Part shown: piece after piece, positions 2,878 to 38,511 of the stretch
Numbering within the stretch: the stretch's first letter is position 1
Layout of the letters: each line of letters starts with the position of its first letter
Source: a virus
DNA: 47,843 nucleotides
Virus record (IMG/VR): IMGVR_UViG_3300025896_001214
Location: 1-47,843 of that record
Strand: one strand, 5' to 3'
Program-made: the position numbers and the translations under genes
Notes under the pieces: generated by a model
What the model saw: only the letters and a program-made list of their open reading frames with translations
The model's database searches: none
What the model was told of the DNA's origin: nothing

Positions 2878-2906
2878 ATTGTAGCATGTATTTAGGAATT
2901 AAGCAA
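2878..2906 (-). promoter_or_regulatory. Sigma70-like promoter upstream of folE
   Basis: Minus-strand -35 TTGCTT (2901-2906) and -10 TACAAT (2878-2883) are separated by exactly 17 nt, and TGC precedes the -10 (extended -10). The -35 hexamer lies just upstream of the preceding gene's stop codon. The layout is the same as the 6795 promoter. Confidence 0.65.
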
Positions 2907-3167
2907 GACTTCGCTTGGCCAAGTGAGCAAATAAAGCATTAAATCTTCTGGCTTCTTGAAGTGAATCAGGATGGTGATATCAAACATTTCATTTGAGTAC
3001 TTGGCTGATTCAATCTTGGCCAACTTACGCCAATTGAATGAATCACCCTTGTAGTCTGTTGCTGACCATCTATTCTTGCAATTATCAATCAACCACCGCC
3101 TAATGTCCTTTAGTGTGAACACATGGGCGGCAGTTTTTACCGAAAATACTTTATCCTTGGCCGGCAT
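2892..3167 (-). CDS. Small 'LTW' family protein
   Basis: A 91-aa protein ending KKPEDLMLYLLTWPSEVLLNS. The acidic-then-hydrophobic segment ending in LTW is the same C-terminal signature as the cluster at 14.3-17.2 kb and the protein at 38278, here with a nine-residue extension. N-terminal part: VFTLKDIRRWLIDN, then NRWSATDYKGDS. Function unknown. The Met at 3167 gives a 17-nt overlap with the glutaredoxin stop and is preferred over more upstream codons that would overlap further. A promoter for folE sits across its 3' end. Confidence 0.7.
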   Translation of the reverse strand: MPAKDKVFSVKTAAHVFTLKDIRRWLIDNCKNRWSATDYKGDSFNWRKLAKIESAKYSNEMFDITILIHFKKPEDLMLYLLTWPSEVLLNS

Positions 3168-3393
3168 AGAATTCACTCGCACGGAGATCATCCCAACCGC
3201 CAATTAGTTTTCCATCAATAATGATTTGCGGAACAGTACGTGCTGTGGGCACTGCTTCTAATAAATTTTCACGAGTAAAGCCATTATGTCCCACTTTGTG
3301 CTCTGTAAAGGTTAAGTCTTTACTGTTCAACCAAGCCTTGGCTTGATCGCAATAGGGACAGTGGTCCTTGCTATAAACTACAATTGTTGTCAT
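3151..3393 (-). CDS. Glutaredoxin
   Basis: An 80-aa thioredoxin-fold protein with the dithiol active site HCPYCDQAK near residue 10, the cis-proline segment RTVPQIIID and the C-terminal GGWDDL, all in the expected places for a bacterial/phage glutaredoxin. It would reduce disulfides using glutathione; in T4-like phages such proteins serve as electron donors to ribonucleotide reductase. No reductase gene is visible in this window. It overlaps the upstream gene by ATGA (3390-3393). Confidence 0.93.
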   Translation of the reverse strand: MTTIVVYSKDHCPYCDQAKAWLNSKDLTFTEHKVGHNGFTRENLLEAVPTARTVPQIIIDGKLIGGWDDLRASEFYAGQG

Positions 3394-8407: not shown

Positions 8408-9962
8408 CTAACTCCTGTTCAAGTGCTGTTAAGTTTTCGTCATCGAGGCTTGCCATGTCTTCTTCGTCTGGAACTTCTTCGGCAGTATCAAAAATGTCTT
8501 TGCTCTTTGCTTTACGTGCAGCTTCGACACCACCAAAACTAATTGAGTTAAGGAATGTTGTGTTATCAGAAATCATTTGGCGCCTGTCTGCCATAGATGT
8601 AGCAGGATCAAATAACACTTCTACAAAATTGTTAAAGTACAAAATGTCGTTTGGAAGGAATTCACTTAGATTAGCAGCCTTTTTGCCATATCCTGTTGCA
8701 TCCCGATAATCAACGTTGGGGTTACGTGCATACTCGATATCAGCTAGACGCAATGTTTCCTGCACTGCTTGAATATGGTTGTACACATTATGCGCCATGA
8801 TAAACAGGTAGGATAGAGTGTCCCAACTTGTTTTACCAACCTTGCCATTCTTATTAGGATCGTTTGGTCCAAGGTAGCAAATGTCACCTGCTACCAAGCG
8901 TTCCATAATAGGACCCTGATGTGGCATCTCCAACTGCGAACCCTTCATATCCTTGTTATCAACACTCTTACTCATAGAGTAAGTTAGCTTGTTTGGTGTA
9001 AAGTAGTTGTAATTGTAGCTTAATGCATAACCACCAGCCGCCACAAACGGACTGGCTGCATCAAAACTAACATTGATGTTTGGATTGTAATGCTTTTGCA
9101 ATTGGCGCTTGATAGAAGTCAAGTAACAGGCCCACTTCAATCGACCAATGCCTAGAAAGTGAATCCAATCTTTAGTAGCAATTAAATCATCTTCAATCAA
9201 GTCCAACATACGATGCAACACCGTTGGCATGTGCTTCATATTGATACCAGCAAACGCCCAACCTTCTAGTGTACGATCCTCGGTAAATCCCATTTCTTTT
9301 ACAGAACTTGGAATACTAAAGTGTTTGATTGTGTCATACCACAGCTTAGAGTTATCAGGTGTGCTACCGGAACAAACATTTAGGAACTTAGTAGCGCCAG
9401 GCACACGATGCTTCATAAAGTAATGAAGGTTGTGTACTGAAATGTCCAGTGTATCTTCAAACTTGGTCAGCCCAGTTCTTGCACTATACGGTGCTACTGC
9501 GGCAAACGCAGGAACGTCAAGTGTCATTGACCAATCAGAAGTGTGTTCAAGATAGCGCAAGATTTCCTCACGGAACTTGTCGCCAGCTGCACCTTTAATG
9601 TTTGCCCAATCCATTTTGATAACACCAGTTGCCAATTGGAAACCAGAGCTGTCGCCTACAATAATAGTCTTAGTACGATCGCGCTTGTGAATCATTGGCT
9701 CCTTATCATCACAACGTGTAAGATTGCGGTCAGCATGTCCTGCTGAGTACAATGCTACACCATAGTGATAGTAAGAGTTTTCTGGATCCAAGAAGTTAGT
9801 GCCAGCCATACCTTTTTCAAACTTAGCAGGTACACGACCTGGTGGTAGGAAGTTAGGATCGGCAGCAATCTTACCCAGCGTCTTAGTGTAGAAACCACTA
9901 ATGGCTGGCAAGTAGAAGGCGTAATTGCCTTCCATTGCTCTTTTAGTTAAATCAATGCTCAT
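8394..9962 (-). CDS. tRNA-guanine transglycosylase/DpdA-like protein
   Basis: 522 aa. TGT-family landmarks appear in order: TIIVGDSSGFQLATG (~100-113, catalytic-Asp region equivalent to DSGGFQ), WSMTLDVPAF (~144-153), FLNVCSGST, GWAFAGINM, WIHFLGIGRLKW and VSFDAASPF (~298-306, equivalent to the nucleophilic-Asp segment). A zinc-binding Cys cluster of bacterial TGT is not obvious. The tail is strongly acidic. Phage members of this superfamily (DpdA) exchange guanine in DNA for a 7-deazaguanine; tRNA as substrate cannot be excluded. It overlaps the sliding clamp gene by ATGA, which favours a role at the replication fork or on DNA. Confidence 0.78.
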   Translation of the reverse strand: MSIDLTKRAMEGNYAFYLPAISGFYTKTLGKIAADPNFLPPGRVPAKFEKGMAGTNFLDPENSYYHYGVALYSAGHADRNLTRCDDKEPMIHKRDRTKTIIVGDSSGFQLATGVIKMDWANIKGAAGDKFREEILRYLEHTSDWSMTLDVPAFAAVAPYSARTGLTKFEDTLDISVHNLHYFMKHRVPGATKFLNVCSGSTPDNSKLWYDTIKHFSIPSSVKEMGFTEDRTLEGWAFAGINMKHMPTVLHRMLDLIEDDLIATKDWIHFLGIGRLKWACYLTSIKRQLQKHYNPNINVSFDAASPFVAAGGYALSYNYNYFTPNKLTYSMSKSVDNKDMKGSQLEMPHQGPIMERLVAGDICYLGPNDPNKNGKVGKTSWDTLSYLFIMAHNVYNHIQAVQETLRLADIEYARNPNVDYRDATGYGKKAANLSEFLPNDILYFNNFVEVLFDPATSMADRRQMISDNTTFLNSISFGGVEAARKAKSKDIFDTAEEVPDEEDMASLDDENLTALEQELDDDN

Positions 9963-10678
9963 TGCTGTGCAATTACTAGATATTCGTATGCAATAACGCC
10001 ACTATCAAATTCGATCTTGGCAACTTTTTCTGAGATACTGATAATCGGAGTACCTTGGCTTGCTGTTTTAAGAGCTAACAACAAACTCTGGATTGGCAAC
10101 GTCACTGGACGCTTCAATGTTTGTGTAGTGTCTGCAAATACAAACTTACCACTATGGCCGCCACCTGCTGAACCACCAAACGTAAAGATCAACTTACCAT
10201 TGTCTGTGGTAGCTACCAAGTTAGGATCAATACTAGCATACAAACTTGCACGTTGGCTTAGTTCGCTAATCTTAGTAGCGGCTGGCTTGACTACCACATC
10301 CCATGTAGTACCCTTGAATGAACGTGTCTTTGTTTTCATTAAGTTAGTCGGAGTCAGACGATATTCATCTTTGTTCCCGTCAACACCACTGAATGCTAAA
10401 CGATCAATTTCGCTCTTGGCATTTGTGCCTGTTGCTACCTTGCTATCCTCTGAACGATATAAACCGCTTAGACCCACCAGGAAGCCCAAGTTAAGCATAC
10501 CAAACGCATCTGGCAACTCACTTACTTTGTCTTTGCTGGTAGCAAGAACAGTAATAGTAGAATCTTCGGGGTACGCCGTGAACTTAGTAGTGTCAGTGTC
10601 CTGTTCAACTAGGATCTCGTCAAAGGTTCCCAGACTTGCGATGTTTTTTGCTACATCAAGCACGATATCTTTTAGCAT
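9959..10678 (-). CDS. 45: Sliding clamp, T4 gp45-like
   Basis: 239 aa, close to the 228 aa of T4 gp45. The pattern of long amphipathic strands with an early acidic region, LKRPVTLPIQSLLLALKTA in the second domain and the C-terminal VIAYEYLVIAQ strand fits the two-domain clamp subunit that trimerises around DNA. The identification also rests on position between a DNA polymerase B and its own strong promoter. It would tether DNA polymerase and, in T4-like phages, activates late transcription. A GGAG lies 7 nt before the ATG. Confidence 0.7.
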   Translation of the reverse strand: MLKDIVLDVAKNIASLGTFDEILVEQDTDTTKFTAYPEDSTITVLATSKDKVSELPDAFGMLNLGFLVGLSGLYRSEDSKVATGTNAKSEIDRLAFSGVDGNKDEYRLTPTNLMKTKTRSFKGTTWDVVVKPAATKISELSQRASLYASIDPNLVATTDNGKLIFTFGGSAGGGHSGKFVFADTTQTLKRPVTLPIQSLLLALKTASQGTPIISISEKVAKIEFDSGVIAYEYLVIAQQ

Positions 10679-10701
10679 TGCTATTCTCCAGTTATGTTAC
10701 A

Positions 10702-10730
10702 ATTATAGTTTAAAAAGTTTGTAAAGTCAA
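10702..10730 (-). promoter_or_regulatory. Strong sigma70-like promoter for the clamp operon
   Basis: Minus strand -35 TTGACT (10725-10730), 17-nt spacer, -10 TATAAT (10702-10707) in the 57-nt gap between the polymerase stop and the clamp start. Confidence 0.85.
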
Positions 10731-10735
10731 GTGAT

Positions 10736-13384
10736 TTAGGAGAACAAGTCATCCACAAATCCCCTATCTTTACTTAGATTTAGGTCCCAGTTAAGTACAC
10801 CCAAAAGGTTCTCAATCTTAGAGTCAATGATCTTTTCTTCCATTGCTCCATGATCAAATGGTAGAGCCTTGAACCAGTCTGGCAGGTTCATCTCATCAAT
10901 TGGATAAGCAATTGAATTGATCTGTAAAGGATTATTCTTTAGCTTGCATACAATAGCTTTCTGTCCATCAGTGATGTCCATACTACGTCTATCGCTGTAG
11001 GCTTCTTTGATACGGTTCCAGTTGATAGATGCCATTGCATGGCCCACACCACACTTGCCTGTTTTCTTATAAACATCGGTGTGCTTGGTCAAGTTATTGA
11101 CACGTTTAGGTGTACCCTTTTCCCAACCTGGTCGGCTCTTAAATTCCTCACGGAACTCTTTTACACGAGCCATAACCGTTTCCATAGATGCACCTTCCAA
11201 TGTCATTGTAAGTGCTTCTTCTAAGAACCGTTGCATAAACTCTGGAGTATCTGCTCGCTTCATGTCCAAGCCCATGGCTTTGAGTTCGCCTTTGGACCCA
11301 TCCTTGTCTTTACGCTTGCCTTCCTTATCAACAATAAGAACAGCATAACGCTTCTTGGTCATAAAGATACCTTTACTAGCAACCAATTCTCGACCTGCTT
11401 TGATAATCTCACCTTGACTAGCAGGAGCATTGAATGCAGTGTTCATGAATACCGGGAACGTATCATTGACCTGATCAGAGATTGCATCATACAACTCGAT
11501 GATCTTGTCAGTACTCCAATCAATCTCTCCCGATTCAATTTGATCTTTAAAGATGGGCACTGCACTAAAGTAAACAGAGTCAGTGTCACCATAGATAATA
11601 GCCTTGCCCATGTGATCCTTCTCACCTGTCAAACAATCATTTACACTTGCGGCCATGTGCCTTGCTACAAGCCGTCCGCATAGTGTAGTACTCTGTCCAA
11701 GTCGTTGATCAAAGAACCTTGAACCTGCGTTCAACAACGCACCGTAAGCACTGTTCAAGTTAATCTTCTTAACCAGCTGTCGCTTGTCCCAGAAGTCGTA
11801 CATGTCTGTGCCGTACGCTTCTTTGGCCTTGGCTTGCAATACTTTACGTTCTGCATACCAGCGTTCCAACAACCCTGGAATAACTCCTCTTGTATCGTAT
11901 TTAAAGATTGTACCATTGCCACTAATCATCAAGGGTTGACCACCGTGGAACACATAGTCGTACACTTGTGCCGAACTCATCGATGTGCTGGTACCATCAG
12001 CCCAGTCAATATGTTCTGTTTGCCCAATGTCACGTGCCATTACTGACTCGTATTCAAAGCAAGCAAACTTGCCCTCCCAAAAATCAGCAATGCCCTTGCC
12101 GCTGGCAATGAACTCGTCAATGCCTGCAAGTGTTCGACTCTGGCGAACCTGACCAACAATTGTTTCGGGACTCATGTTCAACGCACGAATCAACGATGGA
12201 TACAGCGAGTTAATGTCCATGCTGCCAATCCACTCATGCATGCCTGCTTTGGGCACAGCAACATACGCACCAGCCGCGGCATTGTCCTTGGCATCTTCAC
12301 TGCGTCTTGGACGATCTGGAACTACCATACCAAGTCTATGGGCTTCATTGATAACAGCCTGATCAGTAACTGCTACTGCACCTAGTGTAGCACGAAGTCC
12401 TACAGTGTTTGCATGGCTAATCAGATTGGTAAGCTCAATGAACTTCAGCTTGTCATCTAGTTTCTTCAACAACAGTACGTCTTGTTTGTTGTAGGCAATG
12501 AACTTTTCAAAGTCATTGTTGTACAACTGATCTAAGGTACCTTCATAGTGAATTTTGTTTTCACCAAGTTCAATCTCACCAACATAGTCTAGCCGATAAC
12601 TTGGCAACTCGTGATAGTTGTACTTGCGATACAGTTCAAGATAGTCCAGGTGAACACGACCAACTGGATCATATGTTTCCAGAGTCTTGCCATACTTTTC
12701 ATATTCGCGTCGTTTGGGATACTGATCCCACAAGCAGATCCGGCGTGTTTGCTCTTTGCCTAGCACTCGTGTAATACGATTGGTAGTGTATGGAATATCA
12801 AAGCCTTCTGAGTTCCAACCGCTTAGGACATCAGCATCTTCAATCAGCTCTAGCCACATGTCCAGCATTTGCTTTTCATTTTCACACAGGATTGTGTTTT
12901 CAAATTTAGCACAGATTTCTTTTGCAACTTGCTCGCTCATGGCTTCTGGCTTCAAGCACAGTGTGATGTTGACATCCATCCACATTAGATATGTGCTGAT
13001 AGCAGTGATGTAGTTGAACGGATCACTTGGTGGCGCAAAGCCTTTTACTTTGTCGTAAGAGACTTCAATGTCGAAAAACGCCACATTAAGATTGGGAGCG
13101 TCCTGGCCGCCATACTGTTCTTCCAAACAACGATTCAGTGGGCGATAATCACTTTCGCATAATTTCTTATTGCTATGAATTCTGCGTTCTTTATCAAAGG
13201 CTGTAGCGTTACCAAGGATGACTCGGCTAACACGGTCACCAGCAATGTTAGTAAACTTGCCTTGTTTGTCAGGATAGTACAGCACATACTTTGCAGGATA
13301 CTCTTTGAGAACCCTTTTACCATCTACACGTTCTACAACGTGGACGATCTCTTTCTTCTTGTCAATATAAGCATCAATGAACAT
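10736..13384 (-). CDS. 43: Family B DNA polymerase, T4 gp43-like
   Basis: 882 aa, the size of T4 gp43 (898). Exonuclease motifs: AFFDIEVSYD (Asp105/Glu107), SGWNSEGFDIPY and YNKQDVLLLKKLD. Polymerase motifs: MDINSLYPSLIRALN (motif A), KKINLNSAYGALLN (motif B), IYGDTDSVYF (motif C) and KKRYAVLIVDKEG. All metal-binding aspartates are present, so both synthesis and proofreading should be active. The extreme C-terminus (LSKDRGFVDDLFS) looks like a clamp-binding peptide, as in gp43. This is the replicative polymerase. It is transcribed with the two small genes upstream. Confidence 0.98.
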   Translation of the reverse strand: MFIDAYIDKKKEIVHVVERVDGKRVLKEYPAKYVLYYPDKQGKFTNIAGDRVSRVILGNATAFDKERRIHSNKKLCESDYRPLNRCLEEQYGGQDAPNLNVAFFDIEVSYDKVKGFAPPSDPFNYITAISTYLMWMDVNITLCLKPEAMSEQVAKEICAKFENTILCENEKQMLDMWLELIEDADVLSGWNSEGFDIPYTTNRITRVLGKEQTRRICLWDQYPKRREYEKYGKTLETYDPVGRVHLDYLELYRKYNYHELPSYRLDYVGEIELGENKIHYEGTLDQLYNNDFEKFIAYNKQDVLLLKKLDDKLKFIELTNLISHANTVGLRATLGAVAVTDQAVINEAHRLGMVVPDRPRRSEDAKDNAAAGAYVAVPKAGMHEWIGSMDINSLYPSLIRALNMSPETIVGQVRQSRTLAGIDEFIASGKGIADFWEGKFACFEYESVMARDIGQTEHIDWADGTSTSMSSAQVYDYVFHGGQPLMISGNGTIFKYDTRGVIPGLLERWYAERKVLQAKAKEAYGTDMYDFWDKRQLVKKINLNSAYGALLNAGSRFFDQRLGQSTTLCGRLVARHMAASVNDCLTGEKDHMGKAIIYGDTDSVYFSAVPIFKDQIESGEIDWSTDKIIELYDAISDQVNDTFPVFMNTAFNAPASQGEIIKAGRELVASKGIFMTKKRYAVLIVDKEGKRKDKDGSKGELKAMGLDMKRADTPEFMQRFLEEALTMTLEGASMETVMARVKEFREEFKSRPGWEKGTPKRVNNLTKHTDVYKKTGKCGVGHAMASINWNRIKEAYSDRRSMDITDGQKAIVCKLKNNPLQINSIAYPIDEMNLPDWFKALPFDHGAMEEKIIDSKIENLLGVLNWDLNLSKDRGFVDDLFS

Positions 13385-13401
13385 GTATTATGTATTTCTC
13401 T

Positions 13402-13797
13402 TTAGTAGAAGTATTTTGCCAAGGCTTCAGTTAACTTTTCGTCATCAACTTCTAATTCAAGTTCTTTGAGTGTGTTCTTAAACACAGTTTCCAAATCTTC
13501 AAATCGGTAAATGCTATTGTGTAGGCCCAAGAAGCCAGCGCATTGAGCAGCCGCATACGATTCTGGCCCCCAACCGAAAGTTTCATATAGGATACCGCGG
13601 TAGCTACGATTCTCGTCCAACTCGCCTTTGCTTAGTTTTTCAACAATGGAACAGAACGCCCATAACTGTTCTTCTGGCTCAAGTCCAGAGTAGTAGGAAT
13701 TGGCCATTTGCTGGTACTCATCCATGGCCTTAGCAAAGGCATTGCCAGTCTCGTGTAATGCATCCATTACTTCTTGTTTTTTAATTTCATCAGTCAT
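13402..13797 (-). CDS. Conserved small protein, unknown
   Basis: 131 aa, acidic, predicted mainly helical: NAFAKAMDEYQQMANSYYSGL, EEQLWAFCSIVEKLSKGEL, then a Gly/Trp-rich SYRGILYETFGWGPESYAAAQCAGFLGLHN and a helical tail. No domain recognised. It sits 17 nt before the polymerase gene and overlaps the upstream gene by ATGA, so it is co-expressed with replication. Confidence 0.7.
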   Translation of the reverse strand: MTDEIKKQEVMDALHETGNAFAKAMDEYQQMANSYYSGLEPEEQLWAFCSIVEKLSKGELDENRSYRGILYETFGWGPESYAAAQCAGFLGLHNSIYRFEDLETVFKNTLKELELEVDDEKLTEALAKYFY

Positions 13798-14069
13798 TCT
13801 TCTTCTCCAAAGAAATGTTCTCTAATTGCTACATAACTATCAACACCACACTGAACATAACCATCCCAATGCGTGTCCTTCATCATTTCGGTATCTTCCA
13901 GCACAGGCTTGTATTGTTCTTCAACCTGCCGCATACATTCCTGCACAATCAACTGGGCGAACTTTTCTGCAAATGCATTGAGTTCAGCATTGTATGATAT
14001 CTGTCGATTGATATCTTCCTCGGCCATAAATTTAGCCTGTTCGGCAAGTTGTTTAATTCGTTCAGTCAT
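13794..14069 (-). CDS. Conserved small helical protein, unknown
   Basis: 91 aa. The N-terminus MTERIKQLAEQAKFM is followed by AFAEKFAQLIVQECMRQVEEQY and ends DGYVQCGVDSYVAIREHFFGEEE. Proteins with this 'ERI.eLAeqA...FA.LIv.EC' pattern are common in T4-like phages, but the function is unknown. The ATG is only 5 nt beyond the -10 of a consensus promoter and there is no Shine-Dalgarno sequence, so the transcript may be leaderless. Confidence 0.75.
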   Translation of the reverse strand: MTERIKQLAEQAKFMAEEDINRQISYNAELNAFAEKFAQLIVQECMRQVEEQYKPVLEDTEMMKDTHWDGYVQCGVDSYVAIREHFFGEEE

Positions 14070-14074
14070 ATAAT

Positions 14075-14103
14075 ATTATAGCATCATTGTTTAAGTTTGT
14101 CAA
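14075..14103 (-). promoter_or_regulatory. Consensus sigma70 promoter for the polymerase operon
   Basis: Minus strand -35 TTGACA (14098-14103) and -10 TATAAT (14075-14080), both perfect hexamers, spaced 17 nt, with TGC before the -10. The -35 is inside the end of the preceding small gene. Confidence 0.9.
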
Positions 14104-14305
14104 GCATTTCGGCTTCGGCATGTTCCCGCCATTCTTTAAGCCATGAACTATTATCACATTCCCTTACATGGGCCATAACCCTCTTTCGGCCTGCCCCTTC
14201 CATTGCTTCTCCAATGAAGAAATGCATGACCACATGTCCATGGTGCATGATTTCAACAATCATCGCATCGTGTTTGGCAGTGCGCCAACTAAATTCTTCG
14301 TACAT
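14084..14305 (-). CDS. Small His-rich protein, unknown
   Basis: 73 aa: MYEEFSWRTAKHDAMIVEIMHHGHVVMHFF, then EGAGRKRVMAHVRECDNSSWLKEW and a helical tail. Several His/Met residues are clustered, but no metal motif is clear. The upstream gene's TGG-AGT codons provide a GGAG 5 nt before this ATG. It lacks the LTW ending of its neighbours and closes the array operon. Confidence 0.65.
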   Translation of the reverse strand: MYEEFSWRTAKHDAMIVEIMHHGHVVMHFFIGEAMEGAGRKRVMAHVRECDNSSWLKEWREHAEAEMLDKLKQ

Positions 14306-14306
14306 A

Positions 14307-14582
14307 TTAACTCCATGTTAGTTTTATCAATACCAATAGTTCTTGGTGAACATCAAACATCATTTGTCTAGGCTCATGAAACGTATATCGGTCTGGTTGT
14401 ATATAAGGATGCTCATACCATTGGTCCCGAAGTTGCGCCCTGCACCAAACTGATAATTCCCCACTACATTTTATTGTATACCACATTGTTCCGTCTACTG
14501 TAGCCTGGTCGTATACAATAAAATGCGGGGCATCGGGCTGCATTATATTCCATTGCTGTTGAATCGCAGTCTTTACAATCAT
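14307..14582 (-). CDS. LTW-family small protein
   Basis: 91 aa ending FDVHQELLVLIKLTWS. The block VDGTMWYTIKCSGELSVWCRAQ...WYEHPYI is clearly related to the C-terminal half of the 16247 protein (VDGVPWYTVSCRKEVSMWIRENG...WYSHID), and both end with MFD..QE....KLxW. This is direct evidence of paralogy inside the array. Function unknown. The start overlaps the membrane-protein stop by ATGA. Confidence 0.72.
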   Translation of the reverse strand: MIVKTAIQQQWNIMQPDAPHFIVYDQATVDGTMWYTIKCSGELSVWCRAQLRDQWYEHPYIQPDRYTFHEPRQMMFDVHQELLVLIKLTWS

Positions 14583-14944
14583 ACGGTCACAAGTGCAACA
14601 AGCCCAACATAAGTTAAGGAGTGCAGGAATTGATCAAGTCCAAGTAAGATCCAAAATTCTTCGTGCGTGTCAGCTTTCCAACCATACTTTGCATTGAGAT
14701 TCATTTTGGCCCAATCAATATGATAGTGGACAAACATATCAATAATGCCCAAGTAGATAGCTGCCATCGGTGCATACCAATAAAAACAAAGTAATGTGCC
14801 GATACCATGTAGCCCTGCATGAAGCACACCGCCCGGGTGGCCATACGTGCCTTTGTTCATCCATTGGTATGGCTTTTGCATTGGAAAGTCAATAATAAAG
14901 TGCTTGGTAAAAAGCAGGCTTATTAAGATAAGTGTTTCGTTCAT
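14579..14944 (-). CDS. DUF3307-like membrane protein
   Basis: 121 aa from MNETLILISLLFTKHFIIDF, with a GGAG 6 nt upstream, favoured over an ATG four codons earlier. Features include HFIIDFPMQKPYQWMNKGTYG and HAGLHGIGTLLCFYWY with conserved His, and three to four predicted transmembrane helices including a C-terminal one (FLHSLTYVGLVALVTV). This is the pattern of DUF3307 proteins, found in bacteria and phages; their function is unknown. Confidence 0.75.
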   Translation of the reverse strand: MNETLILISLLFTKHFIIDFPMQKPYQWMNKGTYGHPGGVLHAGLHGIGTLLCFYWYAPMAAIYLGIIDMFVHYHIDWAKMNLNAKYGWKADTHEEFWILLGLDQFLHSLTYVGLVALVTV

Positions 14945-14946
14945 AT

Positions 14947-15324
14947 TCAGCTCCACATTAGTTTTGCAATTATAGCATACTCATGATGCTTTTTCCTAAT
15001 CTTTATTGTGAGTCTGTTATCCGAAGCATCTCGATTGGCCATGCCCCAGTTCCAATCCCAACCTTGTTGACCCACATGCTGTTCCATCCAAGGTCTATAG
15101 TGATCGTTTGGGTCGGCGCTGTCAACGTATTCAAATTCTGGACCATAACCACTCCAACCGTCTCTGTGGCTGGGCCCAACTTTAATCTGTCCTTTGGGCC
15201 ATGCTACATTGATAACAACTCCGGGCATGTATCGCCACCATAGCTTGTCCCTAAAGTTTAACCCGCACGGCAGATGAATGCCATTGGGTAAAGTATACAG
15301 ACCTTTTATTTCAAACCGACTCAT
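14947..15324 (-). CDS. LTW-family small protein, Trp-rich
   Basis: 125 aa, start at the ATG overlapping the upstream TGA (ATGA at 15321-15324). It ends KKHHEYAIIAKLMWS, a variant of the array C-terminus. The body is rich in Trp/Gly/Asp (WWRYMPGVVINVAW, GWSGYGPEFEYVD, GQQGWDWNWGMANRD), suggesting a beta-rich, possibly ligand-binding domain. No family recognised. Confidence 0.65.
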   Translation of the reverse strand: MSRFEIKGLYTLPNGIHLPCGLNFRDKLWWRYMPGVVINVAWPKGQIKVGPSHRDGWSGYGPEFEYVDSADPNDHYRPWMEQHVGQQGWDWNWGMANRDASDNRLTIKIRKKHHEYAIIAKLMWS

Positions 15325-15581
15325 ACGCACGATAATGCAAACATGGCCGCATCCTCATCACATTCAAACTCAATAAACTTTTCTCTAAGATAGCCGGGAC
15401 TATGATAGTATGGGTGCCGGCAGTTGTATTTGAGCCAACTATCCACCAAATGATCCTTATAACTGCGTTGATACATGGCCAGTAACTGATCTACTGTATC
15501 AGCATACTTGACTCTGTGCAATACAGGAACTTTGAACTGCGGCAGTGTGTCGGGCCAAGGATTGGTATAAGTTATAGTCAT
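15321..15581 (-). CDS. LTW-array protein, degenerate C-terminus
   Basis: 86 aa, start at 15581 overlapping the upstream stop (ATGA). It ends ECDEDAAMFALSCV: the acidic D-E-D-A-A-x-F approach to the motif is kept, but the terminal K-L-x-W is replaced by A-L-S-C-V. N-terminus MTITYTNPWPDTLPQFK. Function unknown. Confidence 0.62.
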   Translation of the reverse strand: MTITYTNPWPDTLPQFKVPVLHRVKYADTVDQLLAMYQRSYKDHLVDSWLKYNCRHPYYHSPGYLREKFIEFECDEDAAMFALSCV

Positions 15582-15769
15582 GCACCCCACCTCAATTTAA
15601 AATATGCAGCATCTTCTACGTTATAAAAAAAATAATCAATCTTAGTATGATCATATGTGTTATAACCATCCTGATGCAGATCATTGGTGATATAACTGGG
15701 ACAATGTTCTTTGGCCCAGCTCAGGGGCTTCCAAAACGGAGAGTACGGCAATGTAACTACTGTACTCAT
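15578..15769 (-). CDS. LTW-array protein
   Basis: 63 aa ending FYNVEDAAYFKLRWGA, a model case of the array C-terminus. The last codons (AGG TGG GGT GCA TGA) contain a purine-rich AGGTGGGG directly before the next gene's ATG. N-terminal half MSTVVTLPYSPFWKPLSWAK is aromatic rich. An alternative ATG lies two codons upstream. Confidence 0.62.
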   Translation of the reverse strand: MSTVVTLPYSPFWKPLSWAKEHCPSYITNDLHQDGYNTYDHTKIDYFFYNVEDAAYFKLRWGA

Positions 15770-16050
15770 GCCCATGTCAATCTAAATAATGCCGCTTCGG
15801 TGCAGTCTTCAAATATAACTGTTCGACCGTTGCGTCTCCAATGTGCAGTACATTCGATATGTAACCAGTTGGTTATATCAACTGCTCGATCATTTGGACC
15901 AATGGTATCAAGTATTATTCGAGTCCATCCACCTTCATTTATAAGCATGGAGGAGAGTATCTCAAAGTCAATTTCATCTGCTATTGATTTTGATGCCCTG
16001 TACATAAGATCTTCTTCAAGCACTTGGGTTGCAGTTTTGTTTATGCCCAT
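15766..16050 (-). CDS. LTW-array protein
   Basis: 94 aa, MGINKTATQVLEEDL, with a helical N-terminal half and C-terminus RTVIFEDCTEAALFRLTWA. The ATG lies within the W codon region of the upstream gene (10-nt overlap). A 19-bp stretch around its 3' end (15768-15786) is identical to the corresponding 3' end of the next array member (16043-16061), a footprint of duplication or recombination. Confidence 0.65.
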   Translation of the reverse strand: MGINKTATQVLEEDLMYRASKSIADEIDFEILSSMLINEGGWTRIILDTIGPNDRAVDITNWLHIECTAHWRRNGRTVIFEDCTEAALFRLTWA

Positions 16051-16250
16051 GTCAATCTAAACATCATCAGATCATCCTGTTCGCGAAAGTAAAAATCAGT
16101 GCAATTTGATTGGTAAACTGCATTCCATTGACTTTTAAAGGCGCCAAGATTCTCACCTAACCATTTTTCAATCTCATCAATTTTCATAGTAGTGTCGTCA
16201 ACGCCATACCGTGTCTTATAAGGCCACAACTCTTTTTTTAGTACTCTCAT
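16041..16250 (-). CDS. LTW-array protein
   Basis: 69 aa from the ATG at 16250 (ATGA overlap). KIDEIEKWLGENLGAFKSQWNAV, then DFYFREQDDLMMFRLTWA. The alternation of one helix, a strand and the terminal acidic-FRLTWA strand is the minimal form of the array fold. Function unknown. Confidence 0.63.
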   Translation of the reverse strand: MRVLKKELWPYKTRYGVDDTTMKIDEIEKWLGENLGAFKSQWNAVYQSNCTDFYFREQDDLMMFRLTWA

Positions 16251-16666
16251 GTACCCCACCTTAGTTTAGTCATAGCAAACATTTCTTGCGACATGTCAAA
16301 CACATTGCGGTCAGCCATCCACCGGCTGTCAATGTGACTGTACCATTCTCGATCTTCTACACCGTTTTCTCGAATCCACATAGAAACTTCTTTGCGGCAT
16401 GAAACGGTGTACCAAGGCACACCATCAACCTCAGCAGTGGATAAGACTTCAAACAGTGGCATTAGCCTGGCCATTTCTTTACAAAGATTATCAAGCATGG
16501 CAGCGGTAAACATAGACTTACCAGTGTTGCGACCTGAGGCAAATGTCATCATTTCCCCACGTTTGATTCCGCCATAAACAGTGTTGAGTGTTTGCTTTTG
16601 CCAAGGCGCCAGGCTCTCGCCCAGCATTGTTTCAAGATCAATTGTAGTGAAATCAGGATCATTCAT
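16247..16666 (-). CDS. P-loop stub fused to an LTW-family domain
   Basis: 139 aa. Residues ~20-60 read APWQKQTLNTVYGG...MMTFASGRNTGKSMFTAAML, a Walker A motif (GRNTGKS) with preceding strand and following helix as in terminase- or helicase-type ATPases, but no Walker B or rest of the ATPase core follows. Residues ~70-139 (VDGVPWYTVSCRKEVSMWIRENG to MFAMTKLRWGT) are homologous to the 14307 protein. Whether the stub still binds nucleotide is unknown. It is the longest array member and looks like a chimera. Confidence 0.72.
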   Translation of the reverse strand: MNDPDFTTIDLETMLGESLAPWQKQTLNTVYGGIKRGEMMTFASGRNTGKSMFTAAMLDNLCKEMARLMPLFEVLSTAEVDGVPWYTVSCRKEVSMWIRENGVEDREWYSHIDSRWMADRNVFDMSQEMFAMTKLRWGT

Positions 16667-16667
16667 A

Positions 16668-16910
16668 TTAGGTCCATGTTAGCTTATACAGCATTATAAA
16701 CTGTTCCACTTCATCGCGCGACCTAAATTTCCAAGTATCGTAGCTGATTCTGGTGGCATTTGCGTTTTCTTCAGTCCATTTTAGGATCGCGTCAACTGCT
16801 TCAGTGTTAACTACCTTACCAAACTCAGCATGTTCGTAGTACGGATCTTTGAGACTAACAGTATGTCCCCAGCTTTTTCGCAATGCGTACTTTGGCTCAA
16901 GCCAGGTCAC
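16668..16910 (-). CDS. LTW-array protein
   Basis: 80 aa beginning MTWLEPKYALRKSWGHTVSL and ending KFRSRDEVEQFIMLYKLTWT. Same helix plus acidic-strand-KLTW organisation. The next gene's ATG follows with only 1 nt between (16667). Function unknown. Confidence 0.63.
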   Translation of the reverse strand: MTWLEPKYALRKSWGHTVSLKDPYYEHAEFGKVVNTEAVDAILKWTEENANATRISYDTWKFRSRDEVEQFIMLYKLTWT

Positions 16911-17188
16911 GATATACTGCCTCCAAACCGTAGCTTGGCCAGCAGTGCATCTTCTATGTTCTTAAAGCTGAGCAGTGTTATAGTATCATTTGCACTACCG
17001 CTGACATCACTTACATCAGTAGAGTGCATGATCCATAAATCTCGATCTCCGTGATACATATCATAATAATCGTATTCGGCTTGTGTAGTCATAAGCAATG
17101 GTGCAATGCTTTCGCATAGCCAAGCATATACATCTTCTTCTACTGCATCGCCAATGTATAGGTTATAGTTTAGCCATCTGTCAGACAT
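16907..17188 (-). CDS. LTW-array protein, diverged
   Basis: 93 aa, MSDRWLNYNLYIGDAVEEDVYAWLCESIAPLL. The C-terminus is LSFKNIEDALLAKLRFGGSIS, in which the usual Trp is Phe and a short Gly/Ser tail is added. The start codon lies inside the end of the upstream gene (8-nt overlap). Function unknown. Confidence 0.62.
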   Translation of the reverse strand: MSDRWLNYNLYIGDAVEEDVYAWLCESIAPLLMTTQAEYDYYDMYHGDRDLWIMHSTDVSDVSGSANDTITLLSFKNIEDALLAKLRFGGSIS

Positions 17189-17468
17189 CAAAATTCAGCA
17201 TGAAATATGCTGCCTCATCTTTGTTGGTGATATTTACAGTGACCATTGGATCACCACTGTTGAATCTAGGCGAGCAGTCAGCACCGGGACAATGTTCCTC
17301 CATCCATTCAATGAATGCATGATGGTCTTCACAGTACGCCCAGCAGTGCCAACCAACAATTTCTTCACGGAACTCACGCTCGGCTTCGCCAGGCTTACGT
17401 AGAACAGCAGGCACATTATGCCAACCGTCATCATAGCGCCAATGATGTATTACAACTCGCTGATCCAT
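17181..17468 (-). CDS. Diverged array protein with HNVPA/RFNSGDP motifs
   Basis: 95 aa from the ATG at 17468, one base after the previous stop. It reads RYDDGWHNVPAVLRKPGEAEREFREEIVGWHCWAY, then WMEEHCPGADCSPRFNSGDPMVTVNITNKDEAAYFMLNFDV. The ending (DEAAYFMLNF) is a clear though diverged version of the array C-terminus, which ties this longer and better-ordered domain to the short members. No enzyme motif recognised. Confidence 0.66.
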   Translation of the reverse strand: MDQRVVIHHWRYDDGWHNVPAVLRKPGEAEREFREEIVGWHCWAYCEDHHAFIEWMEEHCPGADCSPRFNSGDPMVTVNITNKDEAAYFMLNFDV

Positions 17469-17469
17469 G

Positions 17470-17760
17470 TCATGACATCCACATTTTAACCAAGGCAATC
17501 GAATCGATTGTGACTAACAATACATAGTTGGCCAGCATGCCAACACTGCCGCGAGTGCGAGCGGCCCATGCAAAAATTATACATTGGATTATAAACAACG
17601 GGTACAAAATTAGGAAAGGTGGATTGGGTACTGTTAGTGCCATTGTCAATGCACAGCCAATACTCAAGAACCAAGCGAAAATTTCCAATACACATCGTAA
17701 GGGATTTTCTCGCCAGTCTTCCCTAATGTAGTTGCCTACACTAGATAACAGTTTGTTCAT
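17470..17760 (-). CDS. Small membrane protein, unknown
   Basis: 96 aa with two or three predicted transmembrane helices (VLEIFAWFLSIGCALTMAL, PFLILYPLFIIQCIIFAW, MLANYVLLVTIDSIALV). The N-terminus is charged and presumably cytoplasmic. No family recognised. It follows the DsbA-like gene directly (shared base at 17760) and precedes the array. Confidence 0.68.
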   Translation of the reverse strand: MNKLLSSVGNYIREDWRENPLRCVLEIFAWFLSIGCALTMALTVPNPPFLILYPLFIIQCIIFAWAARTRGSVGMLANYVLLVTIDSIALVKMWMS

Positions 17761-18011
17761 TACACCTTGTTGCCAGTAACTTCTAGAATTTCTTCCATTG
17801 CTTCAAAGTCCGATTGGTCTTTGTCAAAGTCGCCCTTGAATGCTTTGGTGATTACTTTGTTCAGCACTGCTGGCTTAATTTCCATTTCTTCTGCAATGGC
17901 TGCAACAGTTTCTTTGAGTCCTACACTAAGGTCGTCAATCTCACGTTTGACTTGGACGCCTTCTTGGATCACTCGTTTTAGTTTTGCAATTTGGTCTGGG
18001 GAAAAGCTCAT
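17760..18011 (-). CDS. dsbA: DsbA-like late transcription DNA-binding protein
   Basis: 83 aa, the size of T4 DsbA (89 aa). The helical pattern (FSPDQIAKLKRVIQEGVQVKREIDDLSVGLKETVAAIAEEMEIKPAVLNKVITKAFKGDFD...FEAMEEILEVTG) matches the family: an N-terminal helix pair followed by a helix-turn-helix with K-P-x-x-L-N-K and a final acidic helix. T4 DsbA binds double-stranded DNA near late promoters. It has its own strong promoter and a GGAG 6 nt before the ATG. Assignment rests on pattern similarity. Confidence 0.75.
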   Translation of the reverse strand: MSFSPDQIAKLKRVIQEGVQVKREIDDLSVGLKETVAAIAEEMEIKPAVLNKVITKAFKGDFDKDQSDFEAMEEILEVTGNKV

Positions 18012-18045
18012 GTAAATCTCCGGTTAGTTAATGTCTTACCTAGTA

Positions 18046-18074
18046 AGTATACAACAAATCCAGAGCGTTGTCAA
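18046..18074 (-). promoter_or_regulatory. Strong sigma70-like promoter for dsbA and the array
   Basis: Minus strand -35 TTGACA (18069-18074), 17-nt spacer, -10 TATACT (18046-18051), in the 68-nt gap upstream of dsbA. Confidence 0.88.
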
Positions 18075-18079
18075 GAACT

Positions 18080-18433
18080 TTATGCCACTGGTCCCCAATT
18101 ACTTTTGGCTCTAACGGCAAACGCTAACTCTTTCATACGACCAAATTCCTTTGAGCCTTTTGGATGTGGTCCTGTTGCTTTTAGATTGTTGTACGCTGTT
18201 AACAGTTCGGCTTTGGTCTTGCCTTCATACTTGCCGCGTTCGCTCGGACTAACCTGTGTGTCAGTGTCCCAGGCTTCTTCGATGTCTTTGCTGATCTCTT
18301 TACGTCGATTTTTAAGATACTGATCTGACTTGTTGACTTTGCCATCATTGTTTATATCGCTATCTTCTTTGCCAACTGGGTCAAGACCCTCATTGATAAT
18401 ATCGATATATTTTCTTAATAAATTACCACTCAT
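18080..18433 (-). CDS. Protein with EF-hand/dockerin-like loop and capsid-leader-like N-terminus
   Basis: 117 aa from [21 protein letters not shown] (ATG at 18433 with AGGAGG 9 nt upstream). A calcium-binding-type loop [15 protein letters not shown] (~28-40) resembles a dockerin or EF-hand repeat. The rest ([49 protein letters not shown]) is basic and helical. The leader ends I-N-E-G, which fits a T4-type prohead-protease site. A TAAATA box lies upstream. Possibly a capsid-packaged small protein. Confidence 0.62.
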
Positions 18434-18488
18434 GGTGCGCATCCTCCTAGCAATATTTAGGATACATTACACACAAGTGGATCGTACT

Positions 18489-19229
18489 TTAGTTGGCTTT
18501 TCTCTCGATATCTTCTTCGACACATTGCAAGCCGTATTGGATCTCAATCATTCGACATGGCTCATCAAATGGATTGGTTAATTGATGCCATTGCCCAACA
18601 GGAATATGTTGAAACTGGTGCAGTGTGCGATCCTGTTCACCGTCACCAAATTTGACCACACAGCGGCCTTCGGAAACATGCCAGTGCTCCGCACGATGTT
18701 GATGGCGTTGCATACTTAGACTCTGGCCGGGCATGACTATGAGTTCTTTAACTTTGGTCCCGGGCATTTCATGTAGCACACGATAGTAACCCCATGGACG
18801 TAAAGTTTTAGGGGCTTTCCATTCTTCCAAGATCCAGCTACTTGAATTGGCCTTGTCTTCTCCACCAACACCAAATTTGAATAGTATATTTTTAACAGCC
18901 ATTTCGGGAATGTTATCAGCTGTCCTATCTCCGCCATTGGCAAAGACGATTTCGGCATAAGAATAGCTACGTTGTATGCTTTCCAGCAATTTGACAGCAC
19001 TGCCATCCGTGTCATCAAACGCCACAACTTCGTCCACACACCGTAGCCCTTCAAGTACTGCTCGACGTTCCGCAAAAGGCATAAACGGTCTGCCTTTTTT
19101 ACGCTCTAACCAAGCATCAGAATTAAGTCCAACAACCAGCTTATCGCCGTGCAGGCGAGCAGCTTGTAAATATTTTATGTGTCCTGAATGCACAGGATCA
19201 AATCCACCAGTGGCAATTACTATTTTCAT
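18489..19229 (-). CDS. Nucleotidyltransferase-cupin fusion
   Basis: 246 aa. Residues 1-~130 are a cytidylyltransferase-like domain (ATGGFDPVHSGHIKYL with HxGH; the substrate loop GLNSDAWLERKKGRPFMPF is typical of RfaE/HldE C-terminal domains that activate heptose-1-phosphate). Residues ~135-246 are a type II phosphomannose-isomerase-like cupin (LRPWGYYRVL, VKELIVMPGQSLSMQRHQHRAEHW, IPVGQWHQLTNP, EIQYGLQCVEEDIER). Joining sugar activation and isomerisation in one chain suggests production of an activated sugar for the island's glycosyltransferases. It overlaps the methyltransferase by ATGA. Confidence 0.86.
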   Translation of the reverse strand: MKIVIATGGFDPVHSGHIKYLQAARLHGDKLVVGLNSDAWLERKKGRPFMPFAERRAVLEGLRCVDEVVAFDDTDGSAVKLLESIQRSYSYAEIVFANGGDRTADNIPEMAVKNILFKFGVGGEDKANSSSWILEEWKAPKTLRPWGYYRVLHEMPGTKVKELIVMPGQSLSMQRHQHRAEHWHVSEGRCVVKFGDGEQDRTLHQFQHIPVGQWHQLTNPFDEPCRMIEIQYGLQCVEEDIERKAN

Positions 19230-19831
19230 TTATTTTTTCTTATTAAGACTACTCCGTGGTCTTTGTTTAACACTACATCAAAACCTAGGGTTTCGAGATA
19301 TGGTATAACAGCACCACATTTGCCAGTATATGTTCCATATTCATTGGCCCAATATGTGTCATCACATACTATCATGGCTTCATCCGTTAACATCTGACTA
19401 AGCCGTAGTGCTTGTTTAAGATGGGTCAATTGACTCTGATGGTTATTCATTTCCAAGTTAAATTGTTCGCGATATCTAATCTGCTGAGCAACTATACTGG
19501 AATCGGTGTTTTGCGGATTCCAGTCCCAGTCAAAATTGTCAAGTAACACAATACTAAACTTCAGATCCTTGTTTGCATCTAAAAAATCTTCACCAGTCTG
19601 GTTAAAAAACTCAACAGGCAAACTAAATGGTAACCGACTAAATTCTTCTTGGTTGTGGTCAATAATATCCTTATCTACATCAACTGAAAATAATTTGCGG
19701 TCAAGATTTTTAGCAAGCGTTGCAAAAATATAGGTACTACCATCTCCACGGTCTGATCCAATTTCCAACAGATCTCCCTCAATTGTAATTTCTTTAATAA
19801 ATTGTAGCGTTTCAGTAAATTTCATAGCCAT
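19226..19831 (-). CDS. Class I SAM-dependent methyltransferase
   Basis: 201 aa (or 199 from MKFTETLQF at 19825). The SAM-binding motif I reads LLEIGSDRGDGSTYIF and motif II KLFSVDVDKDI; SIVLLDNFDWDWNP and AMIVCDDTYW follow. The layout resembles TylF/macrocin- or cephalosporin-hydroxylase-like O-methyltransferases that act on sugars or small molecules. It is a paralog of the 22160 protein (same G-S-x-R-G-x-G-S-T, LDNFDW and C-G-A-x-I-P segments). It diverges from the 19872 gene across only ~25-45 nt. Confidence 0.82.
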   Translation of the reverse strand: MAMKFTETLQFIKEITIEGDLLEIGSDRGDGSTYIFATLAKNLDRKLFSVDVDKDIIDHNQEEFSRLPFSLPVEFFNQTGEDFLDANKDLKFSIVLLDNFDWDWNPQNTDSSIVAQQIRYREQFNLEMNNHQSQLTHLKQALRLSQMLTDEAMIVCDDTYWANEYGTYTGKCGAVIPYLETLGFDVVLNKDHGVVLIRKNK

Positions 19832-19858
19832 CTGACAGATTCCTGGGTTGACATGAAT

Positions 19859-19866
19859 GATAAGTA
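19859..19866 (+). promoter_or_regulatory. T4-late-like promoter box
   Basis: GATAAGTA on the plus strand, five nt before the ATG at 19872. It has the same spacing as TATAAGTA before the 30621 gene on the minus strand (32111-32118). Confidence 0.45.
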
Positions 19867-19871
19867 TTCAT

Positions 19872-20792
19872 ATGAAGCTATTTACTGAATTTTTTAACTG
19901 CAAATACCCAATTGTAATAATGGCAATGAATCGAGTAAGCGATGTCAAATTAGCAGTTGCTGGTGCTAAGGCCGGTATCTTACCAAGTTTGTCAATTTTT
20001 AACTACTATGTTGGGCCAGGCCAATTTGGATTAGAGAAATTCAAACAGGCAGTTAACGAATATAACACTTTGACAGATTATGCGCCATTATTAGTAAGCG
20101 TAGCAGTTGATACTATCATCGACGATGATTCATTCAAACTACTAATCGATTGTCAAATAAAAGTTTTGGAAATAGTGTTTGACGCACCAAATGAAGTAGA
20201 AATTACAGATGAACGCATTGCAAAACGAAATGCTCGTCTGTTAGAGCTTAGAGCAAACAATGTACTTGTACTCTGTAAAGCATTACACTTGGAAGACTTA
20301 GAAGAAACACTTGTTGATGGTGTTATCCTTAAGGGGCCAGATGCCGCAGGCCGTGTGATCGACGATGGTACATCATTGATTGCCAGAATTAAAAAATGCA
20401 AAGAGTTGTATCCACACTTGCATATAATTGCATCAGGCGGAATTGGAACGTCGGCTCAAATTCAAGAGTGCATTGATGCTGGCGCAGTTGGTGTTGGATT
20501 GGGCACAATATTTGCTGCTGCTGAAGAAAGTTCTATCTCCAATGAAACAAAACTCAAAATGATATCTGCAAGTGCCAATGACATTGGCAAACTTAAAAAT
20601 GGTGCCAAGCAACATGCACTCATTTTCAATGAATGGCATAAAGATGTAAACAACAATACACATGGATTGGCTGCTGGAATTAGAAATCCAACCACTGGGC
20701 ATGTGTTTGCTGGTAAGGGAATTGACCATATTATGGACATTCTACCAGTACAAGATATAGTAAATGCGCTAACAAAGGATTTAACTGCATGA
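19872..20792 (+). CDS. Nitronate monooxygenase-like flavin TIM-barrel
   Basis: 306 aa from MKLFTEFFNCKYPIVIMAMNRVSD. The phosphate-binding end of the barrel, HIIASGGIGTSAQIQECIDAGAVGVGLGTIFAAAEES, is diagnostic of nitronate monooxygenase/2-nitropropane dioxygenase-type FMN enzymes, and GAKAGILPSLS fits the first active-site loop. Related folds include IMPDH, but its Cys loop is absent. Substrate unknown; in this setting an amine or nitrogen-sugar oxidation is conceivable. The chosen Met sits 5 nt after a late-promoter-like box; an upstream ATG at 19857 is the alternative. Overlaps the next gene by ATGA. Confidence 0.78.
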   Translation: MKLFTEFFNCKYPIVIMAMNRVSDVKLAVAGAKAGILPSLSIFNYYVGPGQFGLEKFKQAVNEYNTLTDYAPLLVSVAVDTIIDDDSFKLLIDCQIKVLEIVFDAPNEVEITDERIAKRNARLLELRANNVLVLCKALHLEDLEETLVDGVILKGPDAAGRVIDDGTSLIARIKKCKELYPHLHIIASGGIGTSAQIQECIDAGAVGVGLGTIFAAAEESSISNETKLKMISASANDIGKLKNGAKQHALIFNEWHKDVNNNTHGLAAGIRNPTTGHVFAGKGIDHIMDILPVQDIVNALTKDLTA

Positions 20793-38072: not shown

Positions 38073-38281
38073 TGAAACACTACGAGTACGAATGGGATCT
38101 AAATCCCGGTGGCATTATACTTGATCCAGAATTAAACATTGACCGGTTAGGCTGGAGAGCCGGTGACTGTTTTAAACTTACTAATATAAATGGGCAAGCC
38201 ATGTTGGTTAAAGTAGATCCATTAGTGGGACTAATGCGTGACATTGCTGAAGATATTAAAAATGAAAAAGTAAAGATATGA
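38072..38281 (+). CDS. Small soluble protein, unknown
   Basis: 69 aa, MKHYEYEWDLNPGGIILDPELNIDRLGWRAGDCFKLTNINGQAMLVKVDPLVGL. The W-R-x-G-D-x-F-K-L/x-N-x-N-G-Q-A pattern is typical of small beta-barrel (AbrB- or SH3-like) phage proteins. Start shares one base with the previous stop; the end overlaps the next start (ATGA). Confidence 0.65.
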   Translation: MKHYEYEWDLNPGGIILDPELNIDRLGWRAGDCFKLTNINGQAMLVKVDPLVGLMRDIAEDIKNEKVKI

Positions 38282-38511
38282 TACAATACTACGTGCTAAC
38301 ACTTGATGAGCAGTTTCGTAACGTTGTCAAATGGATCAAAGAGAATAAAATCATGTTTGAAGCTCACCTTAACCGCACAAGATTTTGGGTTGCTGAAGGC
38401 GAGGAACATGCTGTGTTCTTACTGACATGGGGCCATGTATGTACACCAGTATACGACGATGAAGATTTAATAACAGGAATAAGAACTTATGGATTTAGCC
38501 AACTTAATTAA
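38278..38511 (+). CDS. LTW-family protein with C-terminal extension
   Basis: 77 aa. WVAEGEEHAVFLLTWGHVCTPVYDDEDLITGIRTYGFSQLN: the E-x-H-A-x-F-L-L-T-W block matches the array C-terminus, here followed by 29 extra residues. N-terminal part VLTLDEQFRNVVKWIKENKIMFEAHLNRTRF. It is the only plus-strand member and is embedded between two paralogous membrane proteins. Confidence 0.62.
   Translation: MIQYYVLTLDEQFRNVVKWIKENKIMFEAHLNRTRFWVAEGEEHAVFLLTWGHVCTPVYDDEDLITGIRTYGFSQLN

What the first reader, a model, noticed from the sequence alone, without database searches (positions are those of the whole stretch)
14307..17468. Tandem array of small proteins sharing an acidic-F-x-K/R-L-x-W C-terminus
About ten consecutive small genes end in related strings (KLTWS, KLMWS, KLRWGA, RLTWA twice, KLRWGT, KLTWT, KLRFGG, MLNF), usually preceded by an E/D-D-A-x-x-F segment. 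Paralogy is direct between 14307 and 16247. Two further members occur at 2892 and 38278. Such diversified arrays are often counter-defence or host-takeover proteins; the conserved tail could be a common docking or fold-closing strand.
Basis: partly seen in the sequence, partly recalled or inferred. Interest (0 to 1): 0.72.

Follow-up and report, generated by a model that had tools for sequence, protein, structure and literature searches.

The report
Giant undescribed phage small-protein family
A row of ten small phage genes turns out to belong to one undescribed protein family built on a single small fold, which some giant phages carry in dozens of copies; what these proteins do is not known, but they look like early-made binding proteins.

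Summary
Ten of eleven genes at 14307-17498 (minus strand), plus 2892-3203 and 38278-38511, share one domain. Each of the 12 is recovered by a profile built without its own cluster (E 1.7e-10 to 0.0042; best non-member in any run 0.077). AlphaFold2 predicts a compact beta-alpha-beta-beta-alpha fold in two separate runs: the conserved tail is the last helix, not a strand. No family in Pfam, PHROGs, NCBIfam or PADLOC describes it. It is much larger than the window suggests: 4-21 genes beside the polymerase in close relatives, 68 ORFs in Sinorhizobium phage Phosso, 89 in 400 kb of one metagenomic phage, including runs of 21 and 30. Ortholog groups evolve under purifying selection (dN/dS 0.10-0.28). 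A sigma-70-like promoter conserved in relatives precedes the array, suggesting early expression. Best reading: early-expressed non-enzymatic binders on one scaffold with diverged surfaces, probably host-takeover or counter-defence proteins. Family and predicted fold are well supported; function is inferred (about 0.5).

The parts
17181..17498 (-). array member 1 (tail MLNFDV); true start probably the ATG at 17468
   Evidence: hold-out E 4.9e-7
16907..17191 (-). array member 2 (tail KLRFGGSIS)
   Evidence: 1.7e-5
16668..16910 (-). array member 3 (tail KLTWT)
   Evidence: 0.0042, the weakest
16247..16666 (-). array member 4 (tail KLRWGT); residues ~70-137 are the domain, residues ~18-64 a Walker-A stub like phage primase-helicase
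   Evidence: PHROG 239 E 6.4e-5; 1.7e-4
16041..16259 (-). array member 5 (tail RLTWA)
   Evidence: 1.7e-10
15766..16050 (-). array member 6 (tail RLTWA)
   Evidence: 8.8e-8
15578..15775 (-). array member 7 (tail KLRWGA); structure predicted
   Evidence: 5.5e-9
   Evidence: 8e-6
14947..15330 (-). array member 9 (tail KLMWS)
   Evidence: 5.8e-4
14579..14956 (-). non-member inside the array: DUF3307 protein
   Evidence: Pfam E 6.1e-7, above its cut-off
14307..14582 (-). array member 10 (tail KLTWS), same cluster as 16247
   Evidence: 1.3e-4
2892..3203 (-). distant member (tail LLTWPSEVLLNS)
   Evidence: 3.6e-8
38278..38511 (+). distant member, motif ~25 residues before the end
   Evidence: 5.2e-6
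18046..18074 (-). sigma-70-like promoter TTGACA-17-TATACT upstream of the operon
17760..18011 (-). first gene of the unit, weakly like Phage_DsbA
   Evidence: E 0.0042, below cut-off; homolog in 73 of the fetched loci
17470..17760 (-). second gene, hydrophobic small protein, no family
14075..14103 (-). 12-of-12 sigma-70 promoter match (TTGACA-17-TATAAT) that starts the next unit after the array

Best explanation
SHOWN: the array is a set of old paralogs of one ~60-70 aa domain. PREDICTED: its fold is beta-alpha-beta-beta-alpha, with the W-[LC]-x-E-N motif in helix 1 and the E-D-A-x-x-F-K-L-x-W tail as helix 2. SHOWN: the genes overlap or abut on one strand, sit behind a near-consensus sigma-70 site conserved in relatives, keep a common order with genes gained and lost, and are held by purifying selection. 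INFERRED: they are made early by host RNA polymerase and are binders rather than enzymes, because outside the acidic helix cap and a Lys the family-wide conserved positions are mostly hydrophobic and no catalytic set is conserved. INFERRED, weaker: each ortholog group presents its own surface to a different host target, so the array is a repertoire of host-takeover or counter-defence proteins on one scaffold.
For: Family: hold-out test 12 of 12. Fold: mean pLDDT 85 for 15578-15775 with 102 rows; pLDDT about 90 over most of the domain of 16247 using only its own ortholog group, 22 rows. Selection: median dN/dS per group 0.10-0.28 against 0.08 for longer phage genes. Variable repertoire: 4 to 21 members upstream of polymerase in the 19 examined loci with polymerase 79-100% identical, order largely kept. 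Promoter: at most 2 mismatches in 30 of 34 distinct upstream regions of loci with 2 or more members, against 44 of 262 upstream regions of other long ORFs. Protein-level constraint: six synonymous codons are used for the near-invariant Leu.
Against: Nothing ties any member to a host target or a defence system; PADLOC and the other libraries give only chance-level hits. The same kind of promoter also stands at 10730 and 14103, before replication-linked genes, so early timing is not specific to takeover genes. Purifying selection within groups is not what a fast arms race would leave. Expression was not measured. A conserved exposed surface cannot be judged without coordinates.
Confidence: 0.5

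Rival explanations
1. Constant-docking model: the conserved C-terminal domain or helix binds one shared partner (another member, the host RNA polymerase or a protease), and the variable N-terminal part recruits different clients, as an adaptor family would.
For: Helix 2 is hydrophobic at six of eight positions, facing nearly all round (fractions 0.92-1.00 at positions 65-68, 70, 72), more than packing on one sheet needs; the motif sits within 5 residues of the end in most members; one ortholog group has exchanged N-termini, including two different P-loop stubs.
Against: Many members are barely longer than the domain (62-75 aa), leaving no separate client-binding part. No partner is known. Burial was not computed.
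Confidence: 0.2
2. RNA- or DNA-binding proteins that tune host or phage transcripts: the fold is RRM/ferredoxin-like and Trp-rich, so an exposed sheet could stack on bases.
For: Structure matches are of that generic class, including RRM and KH domains (best Z 6.5, 57 residues, rmsd 2.2, E. coli Pol II residues 37-98; RRMs at Z 4.6-5.5); Trp is 5.1% against 1.8% in other ORFs.
Against: Z under 8 may mean only a common arrangement; mean net charge is about -2, not basic; I saw no RNP-type motif in the column statistics.
Confidence: 0.18
3. Virion or ejected internal proteins: a large set packaged in the head and delivered with the DNA.
For: The Atu_ph07 paper reports many virion proteins of unknown function (PMC6102473, abstract and passages).
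Against: The array sits beside replication genes behind a sigma-70-type promoter; I could not check the supplementary protein list.
Confidence: 0.08
4. Neutral or selfish tandem duplication without function.
For: Copy number varies strongly between relatives.
Against: dN/dS 0.10-0.28 within groups; order largely kept.
Confidence: 0.03

Closest known systems
Zinc-ribbon expansion of Bacillus phage G (~35 copies; PMC7824862, passage seen)
   Same: Large lineage-specific expansion of one small domain in a jumbo phage, function unknown
   Different: Different domain (no conserved Cys/His set here); fewer copies than the 68 and 89 counted here
Ferredoxin-like / RRM-like small domains (structure class)
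   Same: Order of helices and strands, generic structural matches
   Different: No sequence match; ends after helix 2 with no final strand; no Z above 6.5
Uncharacterized proteins of uncultured Caudovirales phages in BFVD (A0A6J7WHX3, A0A6J5T136 and others)
   Same: Probably members: best E 1.8e-5 at 61% identity and 9.9e-7 at 30% identity
   Different: Unnamed; nothing known of function
Host-takeover gene modules of large phages (recalled, e.g. SPO1; from no call)
   Same: Clusters of small, overlapping, early-type genes
   Different: Those modules are not built from one domain, as far as I recall; no takeover activity tested here

Membership tests
The new family itself (one domain, window array) | Recovered by a profile that excludes its own ortholog cluster | tested here: met
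   12 of 12 window members
The new family itself (one domain, window array) | Common predicted fold | tested here: met
   two models, same order beta-alpha-beta-beta-alpha; no direct superposition was made, and only two of the clusters were modelled
RRM / ferredoxin-like domains | Sequence relationship to a solved or curated member | tested here: not met
   Pfam none convincing; PDB profile search best E 0.66
RRM / ferredoxin-like domains | Clear structural match | tested here: inconclusive
   best Z 6.5, below the level that stands out
Anti-defence / host-takeover proteins | Inhibits a host defence system or host process | not testable with these tools
   needs expression in a host
Anti-defence / host-takeover proteins | Early expression | tested here: inconclusive
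   conserved sigma-70-like promoter only
Acidic DNA-mimic inhibitors | Strongly negative charge | tested here: not met
   mean net charge -2.0, per residue the same as other ORFs
Zinc-ribbon expansions (phage G type) | Conserved metal-binding Cys/His | tested here: not met
   no conserved Cys/His set in column statistics

The most novel reading that the evidence does not exclude
Giant phages of the Phosso kind use one small fold as a general-purpose binder scaffold, much as other systems use repeat proteins, and devote roughly a tenth of their genes to a repertoire of such binders; the hydrophobic C-terminal helix is the constant part through which members pair or dock, so arrays could work combinatorially.
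Probability: 0.2. Interest if true: 0.85.

Novelty: new variant of a known kind. Interest (0 to 1): 0.62.

Why it matters
Much of a jumbo phage genome is unannotated. Here one undescribed domain accounts for 68 ORFs in a cultured phage whose record has 735 annotated features, and 89 in most of a metagenomic one. Defining it names a sizeable share of that dark matter at once, gives a profile to annotate it, and makes its function testable in a cultured Sinorhizobium phage. If the members bind different host targets, they are a ready-made library of host inhibitors.

Tried and rejected
Single-member tblastn against 50,697 phage records found no relative of the domain; a Phosso member found only itself. 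Library scans with the 102-row and 77-row alignments gave only scattered hits at about the level expected by chance for that many scans; the PDB profile search gave nothing better than E 0.66.

Structure searches: no PDB match above Z 6.5 or better than Foldseek E 0.28. Escherichia phage Lw1 and Citrobacter phage Merlin appear in the viral structure list at E 0.86-0.99, but the profile finds nothing in those genomes, so I do not count them; RaK2 likewise.

Considered and dropped: that the tail is conserved only as DNA, because it overlaps the next gene's start. Overlaps of 4 to 13 nt are real, and 62 of 134 ATGA junctions carry a Shine-Dalgarno-like string in the tail (no control run), but the near-invariant Leu uses six codons, so the protein is what is kept. 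DNA mimicry: charge does not fit.

Search for copies in bacterial genomes: 17181 had none confirmed (12 stretches, 0 relatives). A strict motif pattern found two, each with two members in the fetched stretch; the Rhizobium pair also appears in a 33.5-kb IMG/VR record, so it is probably a prophage.

Rows dropped: A2 uses 101 of 107 selected domain sequences plus one window protein; A3 uses 60 of the A2 rows plus 17 Phosso sequences; A4 uses 22 chosen rows of one cluster. L001 and L073 (copies of the window) were left out of cluster counts; several loci overlap the same contigs, hence 438 ORFs but 337 distinct. L010 was mis-scored in the promoter list (start too near the locus end) and is excluded. 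In one search pairs outside set limits of divergence were left out, so some groups rest on very few pairs (1 to 4 for five groups).

Papers: PMC7824862, PMC6102473 and PMC11242549 were read as passages only; general searches for a described paralog array of this kind, two on takeover or anti-defence genes, and those for Phosso and Atu_ph07 (63, 64) listed nothing whose title or abstract describes it. That is not proof that none is in print.
Full report
What the window is. The window is a 47.8-kb virus record. Its DNA polymerase is closest to that of Sinorhizobium phage Phosso (48%), followed by jumbo phages such as Kaldavass, XbC2, RaK2 and Atu_ph07. So it is a fragment of a T4-related, probably large phage. 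The array lies on the minus strand upstream of the polymerase (10736-13384), with three small genes between.

The observation. I gathered 71 loci by polymerase and 8 by the 16247 protein from IMG/VR, built a profile from ORFs with the tail motif and iterated it. It is 72 positions long and matches 12 window ORFs. The fair test is the hold-out: with a member's whole cluster and all BLAST relatives removed, the rebuilt profile still finds it, 12 times of 12, at E 1.7e-10 to 0.0042 against 301 window ORFs; the best non-member over the 12 runs lies between 0.077 and 1.8. So ten array genes plus two distant ones are one family.

The domain. Column statistics on 339 matched stretches and, separately, on 68 from Phosso give nearly the same pattern: a Trp in strand 1, helix 1 with E-x-V-x-x-W-[LC]-x-E-N, a Trp in a later strand, then h-x-F-x-x-x-[E]-[DH]-A-[AM]-[LM]-F-K-L-[TR]-[WF]. 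AlphaFold2 on 15578-15775 with 102 family rows: mean pLDDT 85, beta 5-10, alpha 15-24, short strands, beta 45-50, alpha 53-63. On 16247-16666 with only its own ortholog group: beta 72-80, beta 83-91, alpha 92-101, beta 108-110, beta 120-126, alpha 127-137, block mean pLDDT 82-92 over most of the domain (one block 62), while the N-terminal stub is poor. The tail is therefore a helix. Its positions 65-68, 70 and 72 are 92-100% hydrophobic and only 69 (often Lys) and 71 are polar, which suggests a second contact besides its own sheet; this is inference, as I had no coordinates.

How large the family is. In the fetched loci there are 438 ORFs, 337 distinct, in 38 clusters of which 20 have several members. 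Among 26 loci examined for gene order, the 19 with polymerase 79-100% identical have 4 to 21 members upstream of it in a partly fixed order; the 7 with 49-71% have none there. A search of whole named genomes found 42 matches in Phosso, 5 in Atu_ph07 and none in RaK2. In 14 named records (two of them, Atu_ph07 and RaK2, repeats) four gave anything at E 0.05, and only Atu_ph07 more than one match (7, best 3.1e-5). With an iterated profile Phosso has 68 members in 3280 ORFs (0 in shuffled, 1 in reversed decoys). I compared by eye the 50 of these that lie in the three stretches whose annotation I had fetched: all 50 share the stop codon of an annotated gene, all called hypothetical protein. Twelve of 12 virus records searched have matches, up to 78 at E 0.001. 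One of them has 89 in its first 400 kb (decoys 0 and 0), including a run of 21 on one strand meeting a run of 30 on the other. These copies are old: median identity to the best paralog in the same genome is 38% in Phosso and 33% in that record, and 28 of 89 have a homolog in another genome at E below 1e-10 against 2 of 89 within their own. Single or paired copies also occur in small virus records and in two alphaproteobacterial genomes, Rhizobium sp. 2MFCol3.1 and Novosphingobium guangzhouense.

Selection and expression. Pairwise dN/dS within ortholog groups has medians of 0.10 to 0.28, against 0.08 for a sample of longer phage ORFs; the sequences are kept, only more loosely. Nine of the ten junctions in the array overlap, by 4 to 13 nt with the starts as listed, and one has a gap of 1 nt. 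Sixty-three bases before gene 17760-18011 begins TTGACA-17-TATACT. In relatives the spacer sequence differs but the hexamers stay: at most 2 mismatches in 30 of 34 distinct upstream regions from loci with two or more members, 28 of them 58-72 nt upstream, against 44 of 262 upstream regions of other long ORFs. A 12-of-12 match at 14103 starts the next unit. Overall, though, promoter-like sites in 8000-20000 are no more frequent than in shuffles (29 found, 30 expected), so the evidence rests on the best sites and on conservation. In T4-like phages such sites mark transcription by the host enzyme (general knowledge).

Function. No enzyme-like residue set is conserved, no known family matches, and charge does not suggest DNA mimicry. 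Small, overlapping, early-type genes with a variable repertoire fit host-directed binders best; I put this at about 0.5. A shared docking role for the last helix (0.2) and nucleic-acid binding (0.18) are the main rivals. The Walker-A stub in 16247 and its exchange for other N-termini in relatives shows that N-terminal parts are swapped, which bears on the docking model but is not proof.

Novelty. Expansions of one small domain in a jumbo phage are known in kind (phage G zinc ribbons, about 35 copies, PMC7824862, passage read). This domain and its scale are not described in the libraries searched or in the paper listings I could search.

Noticed in passing
window 16247-16666 (residues 18-64): Walker-A stub resembling phage primase-helicase fused before the domain; relatives carry the same stub, a different P-loop stub (L006) or a KTAxQQQW N-terminus instead.
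   Followed up: partly
window 14075-14103 and 10702-10730, minus strand: A perfect and a near-perfect sigma-70 promoter match upstream of small genes before the polymerase and of the gene at 9959-10678.
   Followed up: partly
window 17760-18011: Small protein weakly like T4 DsbA (Pfam E 0.0042, below cut-off), with a homolog in 73 of the fetched loci.
   Followed up: partly
window 14579-14956: DUF3307 gene embedded in an otherwise single-family array.
   Followed up: no
L212:4566-5245, L213:2034-3295, L185:7280-7585: One or two family members in a probable Rhizobium prophage, a Novosphingobium contig and a 36-kb virus record; in L185 near tail-fibre-assembly-like and homing-endonuclease-like genes.
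   Followed up: partly
virus record G008, 194581-210864 (loci L143, L144): Two runs of members, 21 on plus and 30 on minus, meeting tail to tail.
   Followed up: partly
L082:5995-8964: The Atu_ph07 polymerase is annotated as two adjacent genes.
   Followed up: no
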